Shown here: piece by piece, positions 40,316 through 62,662 of the stretch
How the letters are laid out: the number at the start of each line of letters is the position of its first letter
How positions within the stretch are numbered: position 1 is the first letter of the stretch
Origin: Allomyces arbusculus
Lineage: Eukaryota; Blastocladiomycota; Blastocladiomycetes; Blastocladiales; Blastocladiaceae
Length of the DNA: 64,000 nt
Assembly (NCBI GenBank): GCA_027604705.1
Contig: JADHYV010000014.1
Span: 248,001 to 312,000, forward strand
Reading direction: 5' to 3'
Position numbers and translations under genes: made by a program
The notes under the pieces: generated by a model
The model's database searches: none
What the model saw: the letters and a program-made list of their open reading frames with translations, nothing else
Told to the model about the DNA's origin: nothing

Positions 40316-40911
40316 TCAGAGCAAGTCGAGCTCGCCGAGCAGCTCCTTCAGGCTGGACCGCGTCAGCGCCTTGCCAACAACACGGTCAAAGTGCTTGTTG
40401 CTGCTGATAAACTGCTCGTAGGCCGAAATGCCAATGATTGGCGTGAGCCGGTTGACGTTTTCGGTCGACCGAATCATGCGCGCCGCGTTCTCGCCGTCCA
40501 CTAGATGATTAGGGTCGAGTAGCGTTAGTCGGGTATTCAAGGGAGTCAACGAAAAAAGTAAGCAACAAACGCTAACGTACAGATGGGCATGCCAACATCC
40601 ATGAAAATCACGTCCCAGAGGGTCGACCCAGTCGCCATGAGTACCGCGTCAGCACCATTGTGCACGACCTTGCACGCCGCACCAAGCTTGTTTAAGATCG
40701 TTTCAAGAATCTTGCACGCGATCGGGTTGTCGTCAGCAATCAGCACGCGCAGCTTGTCCGACGGGTTGCGGCGGCGGCGCGGCGGCGCCGCTGGCAAGGG
40801 TGGTGGTGGGGCCACGCCCTCGACCTCCACGCCCTCTTCCTCTTGCATCGCGGTAAGGTCGTCGACCTCGTCACCGCGCTCTAACGGCACTGCGGGCAGC
40901 AGGCCTTTGCA

Positions 40912-40944
<33 letters not shown>

Positions 40945-40954
40945 ATGCTCGTGC

Positions 40955-40986
<32 letters not shown>

Positions 40987-43900
40987 ACACTCGGCAAGTT
41001 CGGGCGGTGCCGAACCCACAGACGGCGCTGACGGCGGCTTGACAATCTCGAACCCAAACTTGGGCGACGCGTCTGTGCCCGGGTCGCGACCCTCGTCCAC
41101 GTCCAACCCCGCCATTGGTGTCAAGATCGACTTGGACGGCGACGACACGGGGACCTGGGCACGCGGCGGCGACTGAACCGCCGACAACGACAGCGTGCGG
41201 TGCCGGCACGACAACCTGCTCTGGCTGCCGGTCGGCGAAGCCATGGTGCTGCCCATGCTCGCCGTGGGCCTCGAGAACGCCTGCACGCCGAGCCGCGACG
41301 ACACGGGCGTGCCACGGGCCCCGGCAGCGGTGCTGGGGCTGTTCACAGGCTCGAACGAGTCGGAGCACGACGAGAGGAACAGCGATGACACGCTGGACGC
41401 TGGGCTCGACGGCGGCGGTGTGCTGGCGTGTAGCGCCATGAGCAGCGGGCGCCGCGACTGCGACGCCGTCGACCGCGACCGCGGGCGCACATGCAGCGCA
41501 TTCACGTTGGGCGAGAGCGGCAGCGATGCTGACGACGTGTTGGCCGACGACACGAGCGAGAGCGTGCCACCGAGCCCCGTCTGCATCTGCTGCTCGGTCT
41601 TGATGCGCTGCACAGTCGAGTTGTTGGCCTTGACAAGCGGGTCGAGGTTGCGGAACGAGAACGTGCCAAAGTCCGACGCCGTCGGCTCCGAGTGTGCCGA
41701 GCTCGATGACGGGTAGATACCCTTGTCGCCCCGGTCCCGGTCGCGACCACGCCGCCCACGCGCAATCGATCCGCGCGCGTCGGCCGGATCGCTCGATACC
41801 GACCCGTGCGTCCACTTAGGCCCGCCGCCTTCCTCGACACGCAGCAACGACGACCGGCTGCCCTTGTGTCGCACCGCGTGCTCGGCGCCACGCGCGTCAA
41901 AGTACTCGGTGTCCTCGGGGTTGCTTACGACTGGCACAAAGTTGGGCTCCTCGGTCATGAGCGTGTCCCAGTTGATCGACTCGAAGAACGGGTGCGCCTT
42001 GACCTCGGCCGCGCCCTTGGCGCCGAGCCGCTGCTCCGGGTCCATGCACAACAACTTCTCGATCAAATCGCGCGCCTCTTCCGACACGTCCTCTTCAAAC
42101 GCCGGGTCAAACGTGAGCCGCCGCGACAAAATGTTTTCAAACACCTTGTCAATCGTATCGTCGTGGAACGGCGGGATGCCGTACAGGAACTCGTAAAGAA
42201 TCACGCCGAGCGCCCACCAATCGACCATGACATTGTCCTGACCCGTGCCGAGAATACTTTCGGGCGCGAGGTAGTCGGGCGTCCCGGCAAATCGCCGCTG
42301 GTCCGGCGCCAGGTCCGGTTGCGGCACGCCAGTCGGCGATTCGCTCTGCGCATTCCCAATAACCGCCTCTGCCGCCACGGCTGCTTCAGCGGCGCTGCCC
42401 TGCGACGAGGCCGTCGAGTTGCGGCGGCTCTGCATCAAGTAGCTCGCGACGATCGGCACGCCATGCTCGATCAGTGGGCTTGCTGCCGAGGGTGGTGGGA
42501 CCACGTCGAGCGAGTCGGTGCGTGGCGGCCGGTTCGAGCTGGCCGACGAAACCGTCGACGACGTGCGGACCATGCCGCTCAGCACCGAGTTGGTCTGGTA
42601 CGCTTGGCTGCGCCGATCAAGGAAACCGACGCGAGACAGACCAAAATCGGTCAGCTTGAGGTGACCTGACTGGTGGATGAGGAAGTTGTCTGCAAACCCG
42701 GATTGTTTTGGTCAGTTTTCGGCACGGCACGAATTCGATGAAACAAACAAAAGGAAAAGCGCAAACGTACCGGGCTTCAAATCGCGATGCACAATCTTTT
42801 GCGAATGCAAGTACTCGAGGCACAGCACCATTTCGGCCACATACTTGCGCGCCCAGTCTTCGGACAAGCAGCCCACATTCTTCAAAAGCGACGCGCAGTC
42901 GCCACCGTTCATGTACTCCATGACGAGGTAGAGTGCGTCGCGCGTCTGGAACGTGCAGTAGAGCCGCGTCACGTAGTCCGAGTCCGGCTGCAACATCAGA
43001 ATGAGCCGCTCGGCCTTGACGTTCGTGACCTGGTTCTTGGCAATCATGTCGGCCTTGCGCAGCGTCTTGATCGCAAAGTACTCACCCGTCAGCTTCTTCT
43101 TGGCCAGGTAGACACTGCCAAACGCGCCGCGCGAAATCGGCTTGACAAAGTCGTAGTCGTCAATCGATGGCGACGTCGTCGACGACCCAGAGGGTCGACC
43201 TGCGGGTGAGGCCAGCGGCGACGGGATCAGCGGCGAGTGCGGCAGCTTGCTCCCGGCCGTGCCGCTCGTCGTGCCCTTGGTGTTGATCTTGGGCGGCCGG
43301 TCTTGCCGCCGCGACTTGCCCATGGACCCGCGCGCATGTGGCGATTTGGCAGACCGCCGCGACGACGGCGTCGGCGCCGCGGGCTCGTCGGGCCCCGTCG
43401 ACGCGCCACTGTCCATGTCCCTTCCCGACCGCGCCGACGTGGACCGCGACGTCGGCGCGCGCGACGTCTTGGTGCTCGACCTCGACTTGCGCGCGCCTGT
43501 CACAGCGTCTTTGGGAGGCGGTGCCGAAAGGGAAATGCCGGCACGTTCCTGCTGCACTTTTTCCTCGCGCACGTGCTTCCATTGCTCCTGCTTGGCGGCG
43601 AGCAAGTTCTGCGACCCGATCAGCAGCACGTTGACGAGTTCCTGCACCTCCTTAGCAATCTCCGACAGAACCGGCGGAAGCGCGTCGTCAGGCGGGATCG
43701 TCCACCCGGTGACCACAGCGGGGACCCACAGCGGGCAGCAGTCGTTGGGCAGTGGCGGGAACCCGGCCTTGTCGTCGCGCGCGACCGTGAGCAGCGGGCC
43801 CATGCCGGGAATACGCAGCGTGTAGCAGATGCGGATCGGCAGACTGCAGTTGAAATCGTTGACCATAGTGCGGATCGCGAGACAGCCTGTGATCACGTCG

Positions 43901-46900
43901 GCGAGCCGGCGCGCAAACTGGACCTCGAACAGCTGCTGGTCGGTCGGCACCACGGCCGGCACTGCTGTGGCTGCTTGGGCCACGTCGACGTTGCTGCCGG
44001 TGCGCTCCGACGCGACGTTTGCCGTGTCTGCTGCGAGCACGGCATCCGTTGTTGGTGCCGCTGCTGGTGCCGGGGGCGACAAGAACGGTTCCAGCTCGGC
44101 GCGCTTCTCGCGCAACCCCTCGAGCACGAGCGCGACGTCGGCCTCGCACTTGTGCACGTCGTAGCAAATCTTGTTGTGCACAGCGAACAGGAAATCCGGC
44201 ACGTGGCGCTCGCAGACGTGGCAGAGCACGGGCACCACGTCACGCGTCGACAGCCAGACCGTGTGCGGCGGAATCGACGGCGCAATCCCGGCCATGTTGG
44301 GTGGCGGCGCGCGTTCCGGCACGAGCACGCCCTTGGACTCCATGTGACACTCGCGGCTGCCCTGCAAGAACTTGAACCGCACCGACGCCGACGACTCGTG
44401 GCCGGCATTGCCCTCGGCGGCGGCACGCTGCAGCAGCGCGGTCGCGTCCTCAAAGAGCCGGTGCTGCACGGGGCCCAGCACGTCCTCAACGCGCTTTCCG
44501 ACCAAATCGGCCGGCTCGAACCCGAGAATCTGCGCAAACAACGGCGAGACGTACCGGTACCGCACGTCGAGCGAGAGCTCAAACACGTAGTTGATGCGGT
44601 GCTCCGACTCGCTGCCGCCAGGCTCGGTACGCGTCGACCGGCGCCGCCGCGACAAGCCGCCCGCCGCCGCGTCCACATTGAGGCTCGACATTGATGACGA
44701 CGCCAAATCCGGCTCCGACTTGACCCATGCACGCACGCGCGGCGACGCGGCCTCGAATTCCGTGTCGGCGTCACCTCCGAAATCGTCTTCGCTGAAACTG
44801 TGCCCGAGCTTGGACGGCGGGAACACGGGCGTCGCGGCCGAGACGAGAATCTCCTGCATACCCGCATCGTAATTGTCGTCGTCCTCGTCGAGAAACGCGC
44901 CGGCTTCGTCGTTCAACGCCTGCACGTCGTCGTCACCATCATCGTCGTTCGGGACGGGCGACGCGACCCGGTCAGCAAGCCACGCCTGGTCCTCGTCGTC
45001 GTCGAGGTCGCCATCGTCCTGGATCGAGCTTGCCGCTTCCACGTCCGCGCTCATGTCGTCCTCGGTCAACTCGCTTCCCTCGCACGGCTCGTTCGCCGTC
45101 TCGGTCAACCCCTCCTCGCAACTATCCCCAGACCCCGACTCCTCCTCCTCCTCCTCGTCATCCTCGCCTTCGCTCGCGGTACGCGTCGACGGCGACGACT
45201 CGCCTGACGACAGCGACGAGAGCAGCGAATCACTCGCGACGAGCGCCGGCTGCGCGGTCCCCGCGACCTTGATCTCCAGGATATTCGTCAACTTGGCCAT
45301 GGCCGTCATGATATGCACAATGCAAATCGACAGCGGCGACCGCGGCGGCAAGCTTGCCGCGAGGAACAATGCCTTGAGCCGCTCGAGTTTCGCAAAGCAC
45401 AGCTTTTCGCGATCGTAGAGGAACATGGCATCCGCATCCAAAATCTCCTGCCCGATCCGGGTAATCTGCAACAGGATTTGGAGCAACGGCGTCGGCGCGA
45501 CTTCCTGCCCGCCGAGGACCGGCAGCGGCGAGAGCGGCGGGGACGCGACATTTTCAGCGGACGTGGCCTCGGCGACGCGCTTGGGCCGGAACGGGCACGG
45601 GTCGTCGGGGGTACACTGTCCGCCGCACCGCGCGGTTCCCGAACACCCGAGCTGTGCCTCGTTGAAGAGACCCTGTTGCTGCGCGTCGAGCAGTTCCTTT
45701 TCCACGAGTTCGGCGAGCTCCACCATGGCCTTTTGCAGTTCCACGTCGCACTCTTCCTTCTTCTTGGCGAGCCGGCCCGACAGCGACATGTTGACGAGGT
45801 GAGAGAAAAAGCCAAACGGCTTGGGCTTGGGCGAATGGTGGTGCGGTTTGTGGTGATGATGGTGATGGCGGTGGTGGGAGGAGTGATGATGATGGGGATG
45901 GTGCCGATGGTGCCGCAGCTGCTTGGCCCCGGGCGTCGGCGACGGCGTCTCGTCCTCGTCGTCTTCGCCATCCGTGTCGTGGTGCGAGTCTGACTCGGGC
46001 AGGAACCCGGGCACCGCTGCGGCAAACACGTCCTCCATCGACTCGCGGCGGGCCGCATGCATCTGCGGCGGGGCGCGCGGCGGCGTCGTCAGCCCGGCCC
46101 CAAACAAAACACTCGACGGCGACGCGGCCGCAACGGCCAGCAGCGGCGGTGGCGGCGGCGGGGTCAGCGACCCGTGCTTGACGACATCCGCGTATGACAG
46201 CGAAAACAGACCGCCCTGAGGCGGCGACGGCGTCGTGCGGCCCTGCCTGCTGGCGGCGGGCGGCGGCGGCGGCGGTGGGGTGATCGGCCGCGCGCGCGTG
46301 CCTACGAGTCCCGCAAGCGCAGGGGACGAGGCCGTGAGCGACGGGACCTCGACCGACGCCACCGATCCGCGGAGGGACGGCGCGGTCGCGGGCGAAGTCG
46401 CGCCCGACGACGCTGCGGCGAGACGCTGCCGGCGCAAATTGTCGTGCGAGACGCGCCGCAATGGGGATGCGTCCTTGGACGACGACCGACGCCGCGCTGC
46501 GGCCATGACGGCTGCTGCCGCGGGCCCCGGCGCGACGCCCGGCGCCGCCATGCTCCCCGCACCGGAATTCGACCCGGTACCCACCGAGGACAGTGCCGTT
46601 GCTGACGACGATGCCGTGGCCGACGACGACTCGGACGAGACCGACCCCGCCGACGGCCTGCGCTCATGCAACACCCCAACAGAACCGGACGCCGACGTGG
46701 TGCGCCTCGACCGCGCCGCCGCCGCCGCGGCCGACGGGCCGGACACGCTCCCGCCCGATGCTGTGCGCGTGGACGACCGGCGCGAGCGTTTCCCCGTATC
46801 CTCTTCACCGTGACTCGCCTTGGCGACGGCGCGCCGCCACTCGTCGATCCAGTCGGTCCACTTGGCCGGCTGCACTTTCCACTTGGTGCATTTCGCGACG

Positions 46901-49900
46901 CGCGTGCGCACCAGGTACTGCAAGTACGCGTTCGTCTCGTTCTCGTCGTGGTGGCCCTCGGGCGAGCCGGGCGGCCGCTGCGGTGCCGTGGCGGTGGCGG
47001 GCGGGGGCGTTTGCAGGCGCGGGACTGGTACCGCTGGCGCAGGGGACAGACCGAGCGGACAGACGGGCACGGGCGGCGCGTCGTGCGCGCTCTGGAACCC
47101 GTGTACGGCCGCATCCCGACCCTCTTCGTCGAGCGCGAGCGCGCGCGTCCCGATCTCGCGTCCACTCGCGAGCCCGAGCGCCATCCCGACCGTGACGGTC
47201 CGCGACCGCGTGCGGCGGCGGCGCGGTGGGGTCACCGTCTCAGCATCACTCCACGCCGTCGGCACCGGCACGACGACTGGCGGTTTCGGCGCCGGCGGGT
47301 CCCCGTCCCACCCGACGCGGCCGGACAAGAAGGGGATCGGCGGCGCCGACGTCGCGAGCCCAAACGCCGGGTCGGCCGCACGCTGGTACGGCGATCCGGC
47401 AGGTTCCTTGTGAATGCGGACGGCCGCAGCCGTGGCCGCAGCGCCCGCGGCGCCCGCGCGTTGCGGGACCGGCGGCATGTCGACAAGCGCGGCGGCCAAC
47501 GCGGGGGTCGCGCGCGGATCGGTCGCGGTGGCCGCGCGTGCGGCGCGGCGCGGGGTGCCGTGCACGAGCGACGCTGGCCCGGACCCGGAGCCCGCGGCCG
47601 CAGCGAGACTTGCGGGCGGGGTCATGGTCTCGCACAGGAGCAGCGCTGACGCGAGCGACGACGAGGCAGCGGGTGCGCCCAATCCGCCGGCGGCAGCGGA
47701 CGCGGCGATAGTACTGGCCGCGGCCGACGCGAATCCGGGCGGGAACATGTCAAAGTGCAATACCGTGGGTGAGGCCAAGTCCGATGCGTTCGTCGGCGAC
47801 GGCAGGCCCGGACTGAGCAGGGCCTGGTGGTCGCGGTTCGACGCCTGGGACTCGACCGACCAGTGGTCGTCCGAGTCCCCACCCTGCTGTGCGCCCGTGG
47901 TGGGCGAGTCGGGCGGTGCGTCGCCGCCATGTTCCGACATCGACGCGACGGTCGGTGCGGTCGATGCCGATCGTGTCGACGACGCGGGCGCGAGCGGCTG
48001 TGCGGCCATGAACAGGCGCACCGTGCGCCACTGCGGGCTGACGGGTGCGCCGAGCGGGACCATGGTGGGTGATTCCGGTCCTCCGAGTCTTGCGGGGATC
48101 GTCGTGGGCGACGCGTCGGCGCCCGTGGCGGAAAATGTGGGTGAACTCAAGGCCGACGTCGAGAGCGACTGGCTGCGCGGGCGGAAATGCGCGGGCGTGA
48201 GTGGGACGACGGCGTGCCGCGAGGTCGAGAGTGCAGCGTAGGCCGCGGTCGCGTCGGGCGTCGCTTCATACGCGGACATGTGCCGTGAACGCGCGGGGGC
48301 ACCACCGATGCTGCCAGCAGCGCTGCTTGGCATGACGGGCTCAGCCGTGTTCGCACTAAGGGCGCACATAGGCGGGCGGGAAGGGGACTCGGGCGGGTCG
48401 CCCGTGGTGCTGCTGCCAACAACAGCGACACGCACGGGAGACGGCGTCATGGGGGACTCGGATGCACACGAAAAGGCGCGCGCGTGCGGCACGTGCGTAG
48501 GACCGGGGAGTTGCGGGGTCGAAGGAAGCGAGCCAGGCGGGGAGGGAGCCCACATGAGCGCCGACGGAGTCGTGGGTGTGCCAACAATCGACGGAGGGCC
48601 GACCGTCGGACTGCCCATGGCCGACAGCGCACCCACCGAACTGGCGGGCGTTACCGTGGACGGCCGCCGCGACGACGTCGTCGAAATAAACAACTTGTGC
48701 TTATCCGACCCGGTCGCTGCCGACGATGCACCGTGACCCAGAGCCGGCGACGACGGCAAACTCGGCGCGGGCGACGCGTTCGTGGTCCCGCCACCACCGC
48801 TTCCACTACCAGCGCACGTCGCTCCACCCAGGCCGGGCACCATGGGCGCAAACGCAGACCGTTCGCGCGGCAAGTCAGCCACATCGCGCGCACCGGGCAT
48901 CGGCGACGACAGTGCCATCGCCGGCATCGTCTCAACGTGCGGGTGCATGTTCGGTCCCGGCGCGCCCGCGGCCATGAGCGGCGACACGAGCGGGCTGACG
49001 TTCCCGAAAAACGGTGTTGCCCCACCACGTGCGCGCACGGGCGATTCGGTCTCGGACCCCGACTGCGATGCGTTCGATCCATGCGATGCGGCCGCCTGTG
49101 CGGCCTGTGCGGCCTGAGCGGCGGCAGCGACTCCCGCAGGCGTGCTCGCGACCATGGCCGAGAGTGCCGCGCTCGCGGTGGCCGCGCTGCTGCTGCTGTA
49201 GGACGAGACCGACGAGGACGTGCTGTGCAGCGATGCCGACGAGGCGGTGCGCAGGACGCCCGGTGGGGTCGGCGGCGGGACAAACGCGGGTGGAGAAGAT
49301 GTCGCCGTATTGGGCGCGTTGGGCGGTCCTGGTGTGCCCTCAGGCAAGTGGTGCAAATGGTGCAGGATTGCGCGCTGCTCGAGCGAGACCGACCGCGCGT
49401 GCGTGCGTGGCGGGGTCGGCGACAGCGTACCTGCGGGTGAACCGCGCCCGGCTGTCGTGACCGGCGGCGTTGCCGCGGGCCGCGCCGTTTCCACCACGAC
49501 ATCTTCCTCCTCATCGGTCACGGGCGACGGATCCTCGCCGACATCCGCCAACGCAGCCGCAGGCAACCGTTCCGGCGAAATCGTGCGCAACCGTACCCTC
49601 CCCGTGCCCGCTACTGCCGGGTTCGCCGTCGCGTGCAACGTCGGCGACATGTTCGCTGCTGTCGTTGTGGTCGGAGCTGCCGGGAGCGGCGGCACGCTCG
49701 CTGCCGCGGCGGGTACAGCGTTCGGGTTCAGCGGTGACGGTTTGCGCGCCATATGCGGGCGCAACAATGCCTGCGCGACGCCCGCGGGAGTCCGAGGCCT
49801 CGCTTCCACTGCTACGTTGGCCAGACTGCCCGCCGACGACGCCGGGGTCGCCGACTGCGGCGATCCGTGCAGCGGGCCGGACCCGAGCATGTACGGTTTC

Positions 49901-50244
49901 GACGGCGCGTGTTGCGGGTGAGCGTCCATGTCCGGCAGGGACTCGGTGCGGTCATCGGCCGAAAGCCGGCGCGCGCGGTCGGCGGGCATGGGGAGCACGG
50001 GAAGCACGGGAGACGCGGATGGGAGCGCAGCGGCGGCGGGAACGGCTGGCGGACCGGCGAGCGAGGGTAGTGACGCGGTGCGCGGCGCGTCGCGGACGGC
50101 GTCGAGCGGGGACCGCGCGCGCGGTGCGGGTGCGGCGGGCGCGGCGCGTATCGCGGCTGCGGCGTCGGTTGTGGCCGCGTCGACGGACGGAGATCGCGCG
50201 CGCCGTGGCGGCGGCGGATTCGCGCGGAAAGCGCGGTCGGGCAT
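40316..50244 (-). CDS. RIM15: RIM15-type PAS / AGC kinase with C-terminal response-regulator receiver
   Basis: Three exons (50244-42771, 42689-40581, 40500-40316) give 3255 residues. The first 1800 are Ala/Pro/Ser-rich with a His-rich patch. A PAS-like domain (about 1880-1960, VSPLFAQILGFEPADLVGKR) is followed by a Cys/His module (LCHVCERHVPDFLFAVHNKI ... H) at about 2005, as in fungal Rim15. The AGC kinase has SRGAFGSVYLAKK (about 2373), MEYMNGGDCASLLKN, HRDLKPDNFLI (2485-2495), DFGLSRVGF, then an insert of about 115 residues before FAGTPDYLAPESILG (about 2626), also a Rim15/Greatwall trait. The receiver domain at about 3134-3255 has VLIADDNPIACKILETIL and the phospho-acceptor Asp in VIFMDVGMPILDGE. 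Rim15 links nutrient and stress signals to quiescence. The yeast protein is about 1770 residues; the extra length is mostly N-terminal low complexity. Confidence 0.93.
40911..40992 (-). repeat. Hexanucleotide coding repeat, (Glu-His)n
   Basis: About 13 units of GAGCAC (GCTCGT/GTGCTC on the plus strand) with a few substitutions encode alternating Glu-His in the region between the kinase and receiver domains of the RIM15-type protein. Confidence 0.9.
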
Positions 50245-51223
50245 GGCGGAGTCGATCGTATGCGATTGGCCGCGAGCGGGTGGGCGGGACTGGCGTAGCC
50301 GGCAGGGATCTGTGCGCGGGGCGGACTGGGCGGCGCGCGTACGTCGGTGGGCCGAGTCTAATCGCGATCACGGCGTGCTGTCAGTCTCCGTCGCTCCGCT
50401 CGCGCCAGCTGGGCCGACTTTCCCGTCCAACGGCAATCCACGCCGCGCCAAGCACCGACGCCGTCGTGGCACACTGCCGTTGCGGACCGCTACTTCACGC
50501 GCGCGTCCGGTTCAGAGGCAGTCCAGCGGCGCGCTTGGCACGGGCGTCCTCGGCCTGGTTTCTTCACCAAGTGCACACTCACCTCAACACCTCAGCACCA
50601 CCGCTGACAACGATGCGTGACTTGACCCGGCAAATGAGATGCAGCGGGTCGGGTTGTGCGCGTGCGTGTGCACGGCTCGCGGCAGACGAGCACCGGCAGA
50701 TGCAGGAGCTGATACGACCGGGTGTGTGGGTGCCGGTCGAGCTTGCTTGATCTTGATCCAAGAGCGAGCTGTGGGGGGTTCGGGCGTCGTGAGTGGGGCG
50801 CCGTGCGCGGGAGAGGGGCCGGTCGCTGGTCGCGGCGAGGAAGCGAGTTGCACGGCGGAGTGGAGGGCGGGCGGCCGCGCCGGCAGTGTCGAGGGTGACG
50901 AAGGAGGAGCGCGGCCACAAACGAGAAGCGAAACGAGAACGAAGTCACCCGACACACACGAATGGCCCCGACCGTCGTTCGTCACGAGCTGGGAGCCACG
51001 CAGCCGCGTGAGCTGCTGGACCTCTGCGCGCTGGGGCGACGCGCACGTGGCTTGCTGTTCCACGACACGTGCTCGACCAAGACGATCGTCTGCACCACCA
51101 CGACACGGCTCTGACCACGACCACGCCGAGGTCACCGTCGCGACCACCACCACCGCGACGAGACGGCACGGCGGCGGCCACAGTGGCATTGCCCTCCCCA
51201 CCGCCTCTCCGGCGCCCGCAACC
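50245..51223. promoter_or_regulatory. 1.0-kb divergent region, RIM15 / coiled-coil gene
   Basis: Spacer between start codons at 50244 (-) and 51224 (+). The frame of the coiled-coil protein stays open upstream to about 50639, but that part is low complexity and not supported. No repeat or RNA gene was recognised. Confidence 0.4.
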
Positions 51224-60049: not shown

Positions 60050-61919
60050 ATGAAGGCCTACTGGCCGCGCCTACTCGCGGGCGTGCGCGTGCCGCCCGTG
60101 GCCGCCGACCCGGCCGCCGACCCGCTGACCGCTGCCGAAGATGCCGCCGCGCGCACGGCCATCGAGGACGCCAACCAGACGAACCGCCCGCCGCCACGCC
60201 AGCGGCATAATCCCGTCAATGTCGTGCTGCCGTGGTGCGAGTATACGCCGACGCATGCGATGGCGGCGATCGTGAACAATACGCAAAAGATGATCACGAA
60301 TGGCGAGACCGGGGAAGAGGAGCAGCGCGCGGTCGCTGCAAGACCAACGGCGACGAGCGTGCAGCTGCTCGACAGTATCGACCGCGTGTTTGCGACACGG
60401 CTCGGGCAGTGGGTCGGCGCGTGGATGCCCGCGACGTGGACGAGTTCCAGCACCGCAACGCCCGTGTCGTGGACGAAGCGGTATGGCGTCCCCTCGTCAC
60501 TCGACCGAGTCGCCGTGCTCGGCATCCACGGGTGGTTCCCTATCCGGACCGTGCAGCGCATCGTCGGCGAGCCGACGGGCACGTCGCGCAAATTCTGCGA
60601 GCAGATGCACTTGGCGCTGCAAAAATGGGTGCAGCATCATTATCCGGGCGCCGAACTGCCGGCGTCGAAAGTGACACTGGTCCCGCTCGAGTGGGAGGGC
60701 AAAGTCGAGGACCGTGTGGACCACTTGTTTGAGCAAGTGATCGACTTGGCGCACTCGCATCCGGGCGAGAAGGCGAAAGAGTCGTGGCCGTCGCACAAGA
60801 GCTATTGGCAGCACCAGATCGAGTCAGCAACGACCGTTTTTGTCGCGACGCATAGCCAGGGCACGCCGACATCGATTATGTTGGTGGAGAGGTTGATTGA
60901 GACGGTACGGAAATCTGGGGTGGAGAGTGTTGTTTTGGCTCTCCCATGCATCTGCTCATTCTTCGATAATTTGTAGGGAATCATCGACCCGAAAAGGCAA
61001 CGCGTCGTGATCCTCGCACAAGCCGGTATCTCGCACGGCCCGTTCCCCTGGAATGGGTCGTCCATGTACGTCAAGTACCTCGAAGCCGACGCGGCGCGCG
61101 AGTTGTTCGAGTTTAACAAGCACGACTCGCCCGTGGCCAAGCGGTACTACAAGGCCGTTGAGCGGCTATTGGAGCACGACATCAGGCTCGTTCTCGTGTC
61201 GAGCTGGCTCGACCAAGTTGTACCAGTACGTCATTCTGTCCCTCCCCCCCCCCCCCCGTCCCTCCTCTCTAACGCCCCCGAACTGCCCATAGTTGTACTC
61301 GTCGGCCTTCCACGCGCTCTCGCACCCGAACGTCTACCGCGCCGTCTTCATCGAAGCCGAGCAATTCTTCCCGAACGATTTCCTGCCGCACCTGGTCGTC
61401 TTTGCGCTCAAGCTACGCAACGCCGGCATTTCCGACCAGGACCTGCTCGTCTACCTGAGCGACGTCGTCGCCGGATCGCTCTACTTTGGCACGGGCCACT
61501 CGACGCTCTACGAGGACGTGCGCGTCTACGAACTCGCCATCAACTTTCTCTTTGCCGACCGGCCGAGGCCAGCTGCGCAGGGCAGCGGGTTCTGGTCAAG
61601 TTTATTTGGTGCGGCACCGAGCAAGGCTTGCGAAATTGTGCCGTTTGACGCACCGCACCGATTGAATTCGTATCATTTGCCATGGAGTACGTGCTCCTTG
61701 GCGCGTCCGCACCGACCCATGATGCGGGTGACTGACCTCCGCCGGTGGTGTCTAGTTTTGAACTCGATCTTCTCGAACAAGGAGATTCAGGCGCACCCGA
61801 CACTCGCGCAAGATATGCGGCAGCTGTTGCAGCTGTTCAAGGACTGGGACGTGAGCGGGTCCAAGGCGCGCCGCGACCTCAAGTTCAAGCTCGACCCGCT
61901 GCATCGCGCCAAGTTGTAG
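60050..61919 (+). CDS. YML020W-family alpha/beta-hydrolase-like protein
   Basis: Four exons (60050-60919, 60977-61225, 61293-61686, 61756-61919) give 558 residues if the first in-frame ATG is used. The core has LGIHGWFPIRTVQ (about 157), EPTGTSRKFCEQM and FVATHSQGTPT (about 265). THSQG fits a G-x-S-x-G-like nucleophile elbow of an alpha/beta hydrolase. WNGSSMYVKYLEADAARELF and LYSSAFHALSHPNVYRAVFI follow, in the order of the fungal YML020W family, whose substrate is unknown. The catalytic Asp and His were not assigned. The introns are 57-69 nt; the second has a run of 14 C in its pyrimidine tract. The start is uncertain: the frame extends 15 codons upstream without an ATG, so a short 5' exon is possible. 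Confidence 0.8.
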
Positions 61920-61978
61920 CCTGGTGGCTGCTTGTAGTAGAGAACACAAAAGTTTTGCACCATTGATTTCCATTTGCG

Positions 61979-62662
61979 TTACAAGGCCAGTTTCAGTCGC
62001 GTCAGTCGCCATTGCACGGCGATCGCGGCGAGCTCAAGGACGAGGACGGGCAGACTGATGGGTGGAGGTGAGCATCGCGCACATCGTACTACAGGGTGGA
62101 GAGCGGCGCGTACCTCGTCCACAGAAAAATGTACCACAACACGCGGTAGTCCATGCGCGGCTGCATCGTATACGCGAGCAACCACAGCGCGCCGAGCGCG
62201 TGGTCGATAATATCTAGTGTGTCGACACGGTCAGTTGCGGATGCTGTTGCGCACGCGCACATGGCCCAGACGTACAAAATAGATTGACGAGTGGCCGGAA
62301 CACGGTCACGCCCGTGAAAACGCCAGCGAAATTGACGAGCGGGCCAAAGGCGATGAGAACATGCGCACTGATGGCTCTATTTTTGGTGTGGATGAGCGGG
62401 ACTTACAACGACCGGTTAGCGGGTCGTCAACGTACGCGGTATCAGCGGCAGAGTGCTCGGCTGCCGTGTACACGGCCGACAGCGCAGCGACGACGTGTGG
62501 GTCCTAAATGGAATGATCGGCGATTGTTGAGCGCTCTGGGCGTTCTCCACCCGACCACGACAGTTGGAATGAGGTCGAGCGTACTCGGCTGGCCAGGCAC
62601 GTCAGGGACGAGACGGTGAGCCCGACCGCGGTCAGGAACCGCAGGGAGAGAAGACTCGCCAT
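61979..62662 (-). CDS. TMEM107: TMEM107, ciliary transition-zone membrane protein
   Basis: Five exons (62662-62585, 62503-62436, 62367-62276, 62213-62114, 62054-61979) join in frame to 137 residues; human TMEM107 is 140. Four membrane segments are visible. Matches to animal TMEM107 run the whole length: LRFLTAVGLTVSSLTCLASRD at the N-terminus (human SRFLTLLAHLVVVITLFWSRD), FAGVFTGVTVFRPLVNL (human ELAGFLSGVSMFNSTQSL), and LWYIFLWTSLPVLVLELAAI (human YWYIFVFCSALPAVTEMALF). TMEM107 is part of the MKS module at the base of cilia, where it helps gate membrane proteins. All four introns have GT-AG ends with GTACG donors. The short length means an unspliced reading would miss the gene completely. 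Confidence 0.85.

What the first reader, a model, noticed from the sequence alone, without database searches (positions are those of the whole stretch)
61979..62662. TMEM107, a ciliary transition-zone gene, in a fungal-type genome
Seen: five tiny exons with 62-81 nt introns splice to 137 residues matching TMEM107 end to end, including the spacing of four membrane segments. Known: TMEM107 belongs to the MKS transition-zone module, and many lineages with simplified or lost cilia lack MKS genes. Inference: this zoosporic fungus keeps at least part of the MKS gate. Such a small, intron-split gene is easily missed by automatic annotation, so its reported distribution in fungi may be an underestimate.
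Basis: partly seen in the sequence, partly recalled or inferred. Interest (0 to 1): 0.72.

Follow-up and report, generated by a model that had tools for sequence, protein, structure and literature searches.

The report
TMEM107 cilium-gate gene in zoosporic fungus

Summary
On the minus strand, 62662-61979, five exons joined by four GTACG...AG introns (81, 68, 62, 59 nt) encode 137 residues. Pfam's only match is TMEM107 (PF14995), 57.9 bits against a cut-off of 26, E 1.7e-15, nearly the whole profile. No second copy was found. PACRG, a flagellar marker, is present. No third B9 locus (MKS1) was seen; CEP290, AHI1 and NPHP genes were not searched.

This is not surprising. Chytrid genomes are reported to carry 'MKS complex' and 'ciliary transition zone' terms (PMC6572847), and a TMEM107 residue is described as conserved 'from fungi to humans' (PMC8971417). 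That such genes are easily missed gains some support: a six-frame profile search of the genome missed this one. New member of a known family; transcripts untested; fungal identity likely, species unnamed.

The parts
62585..62662 (-). TMEM107 exon 1 (ATG at 62662-62660), first hydrophobic segment
62504..62584 (-). intron 1, 81 nt, GTACGC...TTTAG, in-frame TAG at its end
62436..62503 (-). TMEM107 exon 2
62368..62435 (-). intron 2, 68 nt, GTACGT...ATCAG, with CTAAC inside (starts 52 nt from its 3' end)
62276..62367 (-). TMEM107 exon 3, second hydrophobic segment
62214..62275 (-). intron 3, 62 nt, GTACGT...ACTAG, CTGAC starts 21 nt from its 3' end
62114..62213 (-). TMEM107 exon 4, third hydrophobic segment and the WYIF start of the fourth
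62055..62113 (-). intron 4, 59 nt, GTACGC...ATCAG
61979..62054 (-). TMEM107 exon 5 with TAA stop, rest of the fourth hydrophobic segment and basic tail

Best explanation
This is a functional TMEM107 gene, with no second copy found. Its product is a small membrane protein, probably with four membrane segments, that most likely sits at the transition zone of the zoospore flagellum together with the other MKS membrane proteins (TMEM231, TMEM17/216, Meckelin, tectonic) and the B9/CC2D2A proteins beneath them, and helps form the gate that keeps flagellar membrane composition distinct. Shown here: the intact gene, family membership, and the presence in the assembly of matches to five other transition-zone families over their cut-offs. 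Inferred from animals and other models: location, complex membership and gating role.
For: Profile match over nearly its whole length, only one family hit; intact frame and four matching introns; all five exons found at this locus only; B9 domains at two loci, best E 3.3e-34; TMEM231 two exons, best E 1.9e-12; TMEM17/216 family at two loci, best E 2.5e-14; Meckelin E 2.8e-50 and phmmer to the solved Meckelin chain 7fh1_A E 2.3e-23; tectonic domain twice in one locus, at the cut-off; CC2D2A-like gene with a CEP76-type peptidase-like domain E 1.3e-29; PACRG E 1.2e-33.
Against: No transcripts, protein or localisation data. No TMEM107 from a named fungus was available for comparison or for a test of selection. 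The tectonic matches lie at the cut-off (21.4 and 23.3 bits on rescanning, 22 needed); the CC2D2A N-C2 match is below it (16.5 bits, 14.1, 25 needed). Only two B9 loci were found, so MKS1 was not seen; the RPGRIP1-type C2 match is below its cut-off (18.6 bits, 29.2 needed). The profile search with TMEM107's own family found nothing in the genome. Hydropathy does not cleanly part the second and third segments. Two introns lack a CTRAY motif.
Confidence: 0.93

Rival explanations
1. It is a decaying copy (pseudogene) of TMEM107.
For: No expression data; small gene; no relative to test selection.
Against: Open frame end to end, all eight splice-site dinucleotides intact, coding-type third-position GC of 0.77, no second copy found that could have taken over, other MKS families retained.
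Confidence: 0.03
2. It is another small multi-pass membrane protein with chance resemblance.
For: Such proteins share hydrophobic composition; splice-model choice multiplies the trials.
Against: Only PF14995 matches up to E 10, at 57.9 bits; correcting for 134,522 models leaves about 2e-10; TMEM17/216-family genes, the other small MKS membrane proteins, are found separately elsewhere.
Confidence: 0.01
3. The contig is contamination from another ciliated eukaryote such as a protist or animal.
Against: The gene sits inside a 440-kb contig, C14, with a Rim15-type gene in the same window; its introns share the 5' splice-site type enriched in the window; matches to MKS families lie on other contigs of the assembly: C2, C4, C7, C8, C12, C37 over the cut-off and C21 below it for N-C2.
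Confidence: 0.02

Closest known systems
TMEM107 (Pfam PF14995), MKS-module membrane protein of the ciliary transition zone
   Same: Profile match over positions 1-122 of 123; 137 residues; hydrophobic pattern that fits four membrane segments
   Different: Nothing beyond ordinary divergence was seen; five short exons
TMEM17/TMEM216 family (PF09799)
   Same: Small MKS membrane proteins with several membrane segments
   Different: The window protein does not match PF09799; genes of that family exist on C4 and C7
MKS/transition-zone genes reported in chytrid fungi (PMC6572847) and in ciliated eukaryotes (PMC4092220, PMC4794247)
   Same: Same module; PMC6572847 finds the GO terms 'MKS complex' and 'ciliary transition zone' only in the chytrids it compared; a figure legend in PMC4794247 includes Batrachochytrium in its TMEM17-family survey
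   Different: The word TMEM107 does not occur in the main text of PMC4092220; its tables were not seen

Membership tests
TMEM107 (PF14995) | Match to the curated profile above its cut-off over its length | tested here: met
   57.9 bits, cut-off 26, profile 1-122 of 123
TMEM107 (PF14995) | Four membrane-spanning segments | tested here: inconclusive
   Kyte-Doolittle maxima fit four segments, but the second and third run together
TMEM107 (PF14995) | Occurs together with other MKS-module genes | tested here: met
   Whole-genome searches with seven further transition-zone families: five over the cut-off (B9, TM231, Transmemb_17, Meckelin, TCTN at 22 of 22 bits), two below (CC2D2A N-C2, RPGRIP1 C2-C2_1); CC2D2A candidate has a CEP76-type peptidase-like domain, E 1.3e-29
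TMEM107 (PF14995) | Localises to the transition zone | not testable with these tools
   needs microscopy
TMEM107 (PF14995) | Fold matches TMEM107 | not tested
Zoosporic fungus (host) | Fungal gene content plus flagellar genes | tested here: inconclusive
   Rim15-type PAS/kinase/response-regulator gene, thymidylate synthase frame without DHFR, PACRG; no phylogeny could be made

The most novel reading that the evidence does not exclude
TMEM107, because of its short exons, is systematically missing from fungal proteomes, so that presence/absence studies of the MKS gate in fungi built on annotated proteins undercount it across zoosporic lineages; the MKS gate would then be nearly complete wherever fungi keep a flagellum.
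Probability: 0.3. Interest if true: 0.4.

Novelty: new member of a known kind. Interest (0 to 1): 0.22.

Why it matters
It adds a well-supported gene model to the transition-zone set of what is most likely a zoosporic fungus and shows, with the other MKS genes found, that a good part of the gate is retained there. It also gives a concrete case of a five-exon, 137-residue gene that a six-frame profile search misses. It does not change the accepted picture that ciliated fungi keep the MKS module.

Tried and rejected
A whole-genome PF14995 search found nothing, neither here nor in the 14 control genomes; the tool itself says this does not show absence, and the exons are short. The control genomes rang in 0 of 14 for every transition-zone family and PACRG, so the own-genome searches have no positive control. 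PDB sequence search with TMEM107 found nothing up to E 10; with the B9 frame of L001 nothing up to E 1. I did not map human Phe106 of TMEM107 onto this protein: no human sequence was obtained and my recall was unreliable. The paper on TMEM107 by Lambacher et al. (PMC5580800) is not held, so whatever it says on distribution was not seen. The names B9D2-like (L001) and B9D1-like (L002) rest on recall of the human proteins, not on a call, and are not used as evidence.

Full report
What is there. The minus strand of window 62662-61979 carries a five-exon gene. With introns read as GT...AG at 62584-62504, 62435-62368, 62275-62214 and 62113-62055 the exons of 78, 68, 92, 100 and 76 nt give 414 nt, that is 137 codons and TAA. 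All four introns begin GTACG. GTACGY is enriched in the window (85 seen, 47.4 expected, 0 of 100 shuffles as high). A CTRAY motif is in introns 2 and 3 only. The third-position GC of the model is 0.77; a conserved P-type ATPase frame in the window has 0.81.

Is it TMEM107? A Pfam scan of the 137 residues returns one family up to E 10: PF14995 TMEM107, 57.9 bits against a cut-off of 26, E 1.7e-15, residues 4-123 on profile positions 1-122 of 123. I counted 134,522 splice models that join the same ATG and stop with introns of 50-120 nt; the corrected E-value is about 2e-10. Counting every ATG-to-stop model in 1.25 kb on both strands (about 1.4e13, nearly all on the plus strand and overlapping) would push it to about 0.02, a correction far too strict, given here for completeness. 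Hydropathy fits four segments, but the second and third run together. A search of the whole 25.9-Mb assembly with the protein lists five matches up to E 10, the five exons of this locus. A fold could not be predicted, and no solved chain matches by sequence.

Is it part of a working gate? Seven further transition-zone families were searched in the same assembly, six-frame, E up to 1. Five passed their cut-offs: B9 domain at two loci, C8 (E 3.3e-34) and C12; TMEM231 on C7, two exons; TMEM17/216 family on C7 and C4; Meckelin on C2, E 2.8e-50, which also matches the solved Meckelin chain 7fh1_A with E 2.3e-23; tectonic on C37, 22 bits against 22, with a second weaker match 0.8 kb on (21.4 and 23.3 bits on rescanning the frames). 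Two did not: CC2D2A N-C2 on C21 (16.5 bits, 25 needed) and RPGRIP1 C2-C2_1 on C20 (18.6 bits, 29.2 needed). Next to the N-C2 match an open frame has a CEP76-type peptidase-like domain (E 1.3e-29) and a CEP76 C-terminal domain (1e-7). I read this as CC2D2A rather than CEP76 because the two adjoining frames are 831 and 809 codons long, stop to stop; not all of that is coding, and the reading is inference. No third B9 locus was listed, so no sign of MKS1. CEP290, AHI1, NPHP1/4, TMEM138 and TMEM237 were not searched. PACRG, a motile-flagellum protein (from general knowledge), is present. The 14 control genomes rang in none of these searches, so they serve as no positive control.

Whose genome? The window holds an HMG-CoA reductase with a sterol-sensing domain and a GATA-finger gene, and a very long gene with a PAS domain and a kinase whose second part is best matched in the PDB by Greatwall and carries a response regulator (29.6 bits, just under its cut-off of 30.2); that order is the Rim15 architecture of fungi (recalled). 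Thymidylate synthase has no DHFR domain in its 419-codon frame. EF1A-family proteins carry residues where mammalian EF1A has the opisthokont insertion (recalled meaning, no non-opisthokont compared). With the flagellar genes, a zoosporic fungus is the best reading; no tree was made. Window GC of 59-74% per 4 kb is nearer to the 61.6% listed for Allomyces macrogynus than to the 44.9 and 47.6% listed for two chytrids (PMC8371127, passage), only a hint.

What was known. PMC6572847 (passages) reports the terms 'ciliary transition zone' and 'MKS complex' exclusively in the chytrid genomes it compared with six other fungi. [quoted passage not shown] PMC4092220 (one passage and part 1 of 2 of its results) finds most transition-zone proteins widespread among ciliated eukaryotes and several lineages with unusual cilia that lack them. 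PMC4794247 (two passages) includes Batrachochytrium in a TMEM17-family survey. PMC13358043 (abstract and one passage) finds a 'defined transition zone cohort' in the minimal fungal flagellum; its main text has no word beginning TMEM or MKS. PMC10425847, PMC8371127 and PMC12659703 (passages) did not mention TMEM107 or no TMEM word. Six literature searches were sent and five answered (one search failed); their lists were partly capped (for example 20 of 2,850), and no listed title deals with TMEM107 in a fungus. The paper by Lambacher et al. is not held.

How it works. By its family, TMEM107 helps organise the MKS membrane proteins into a barrier at the flagellar base (family knowledge; PMC8971417 passages describe the transition zone barrier); in this organism that is inference from homology. 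The retained partners give it weight.

Missed by annotation? The PF14995 six-frame search of the genome had no candidate, while the same-protein search recovered every exon.

Verdict. Observation confirmed, interpretation supported, novelty low.

Noticed in passing
G000 C83:57070-58371 (L015) and C47:110385-111686 (L016): The two best EF1A-family matches are divergent (345 bits in the main exon, EF1A cut-off 540; none of 22 listed matches passes it, scored exon by exon) and about 98% alike over the main exon with unrelated flanks, so a recent duplicate; they may be EFL-type factors that replace EF1A (EFL is recalled).
   Followed up: partly
G000 C4:768884-770360 (L018, L021): A differently diverged EF1A-like gene in two frames, with a 'MPWYQGWSRQSKDG' stretch at the insertion region.
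   Followed up: no
window 40549-50367 (-): Very long Rim15/Greatwall-type gene: PAS, kinase and response-regulator matches in two adjoining frames, with a His-Glu repeat near its end.
   Followed up: partly
window 61293-61979: TMEM107 lies tail to tail with a plus-strand open frame that ends about 60 nt from its stop codon.
   Followed up: no
G000 C21:190763-195685 (L026, minus strand): CC2D2A-like gene in two long adjoining frames with a strong CEP76-type peptidase-like domain but a weak N-terminal C2 match.
   Followed up: partly
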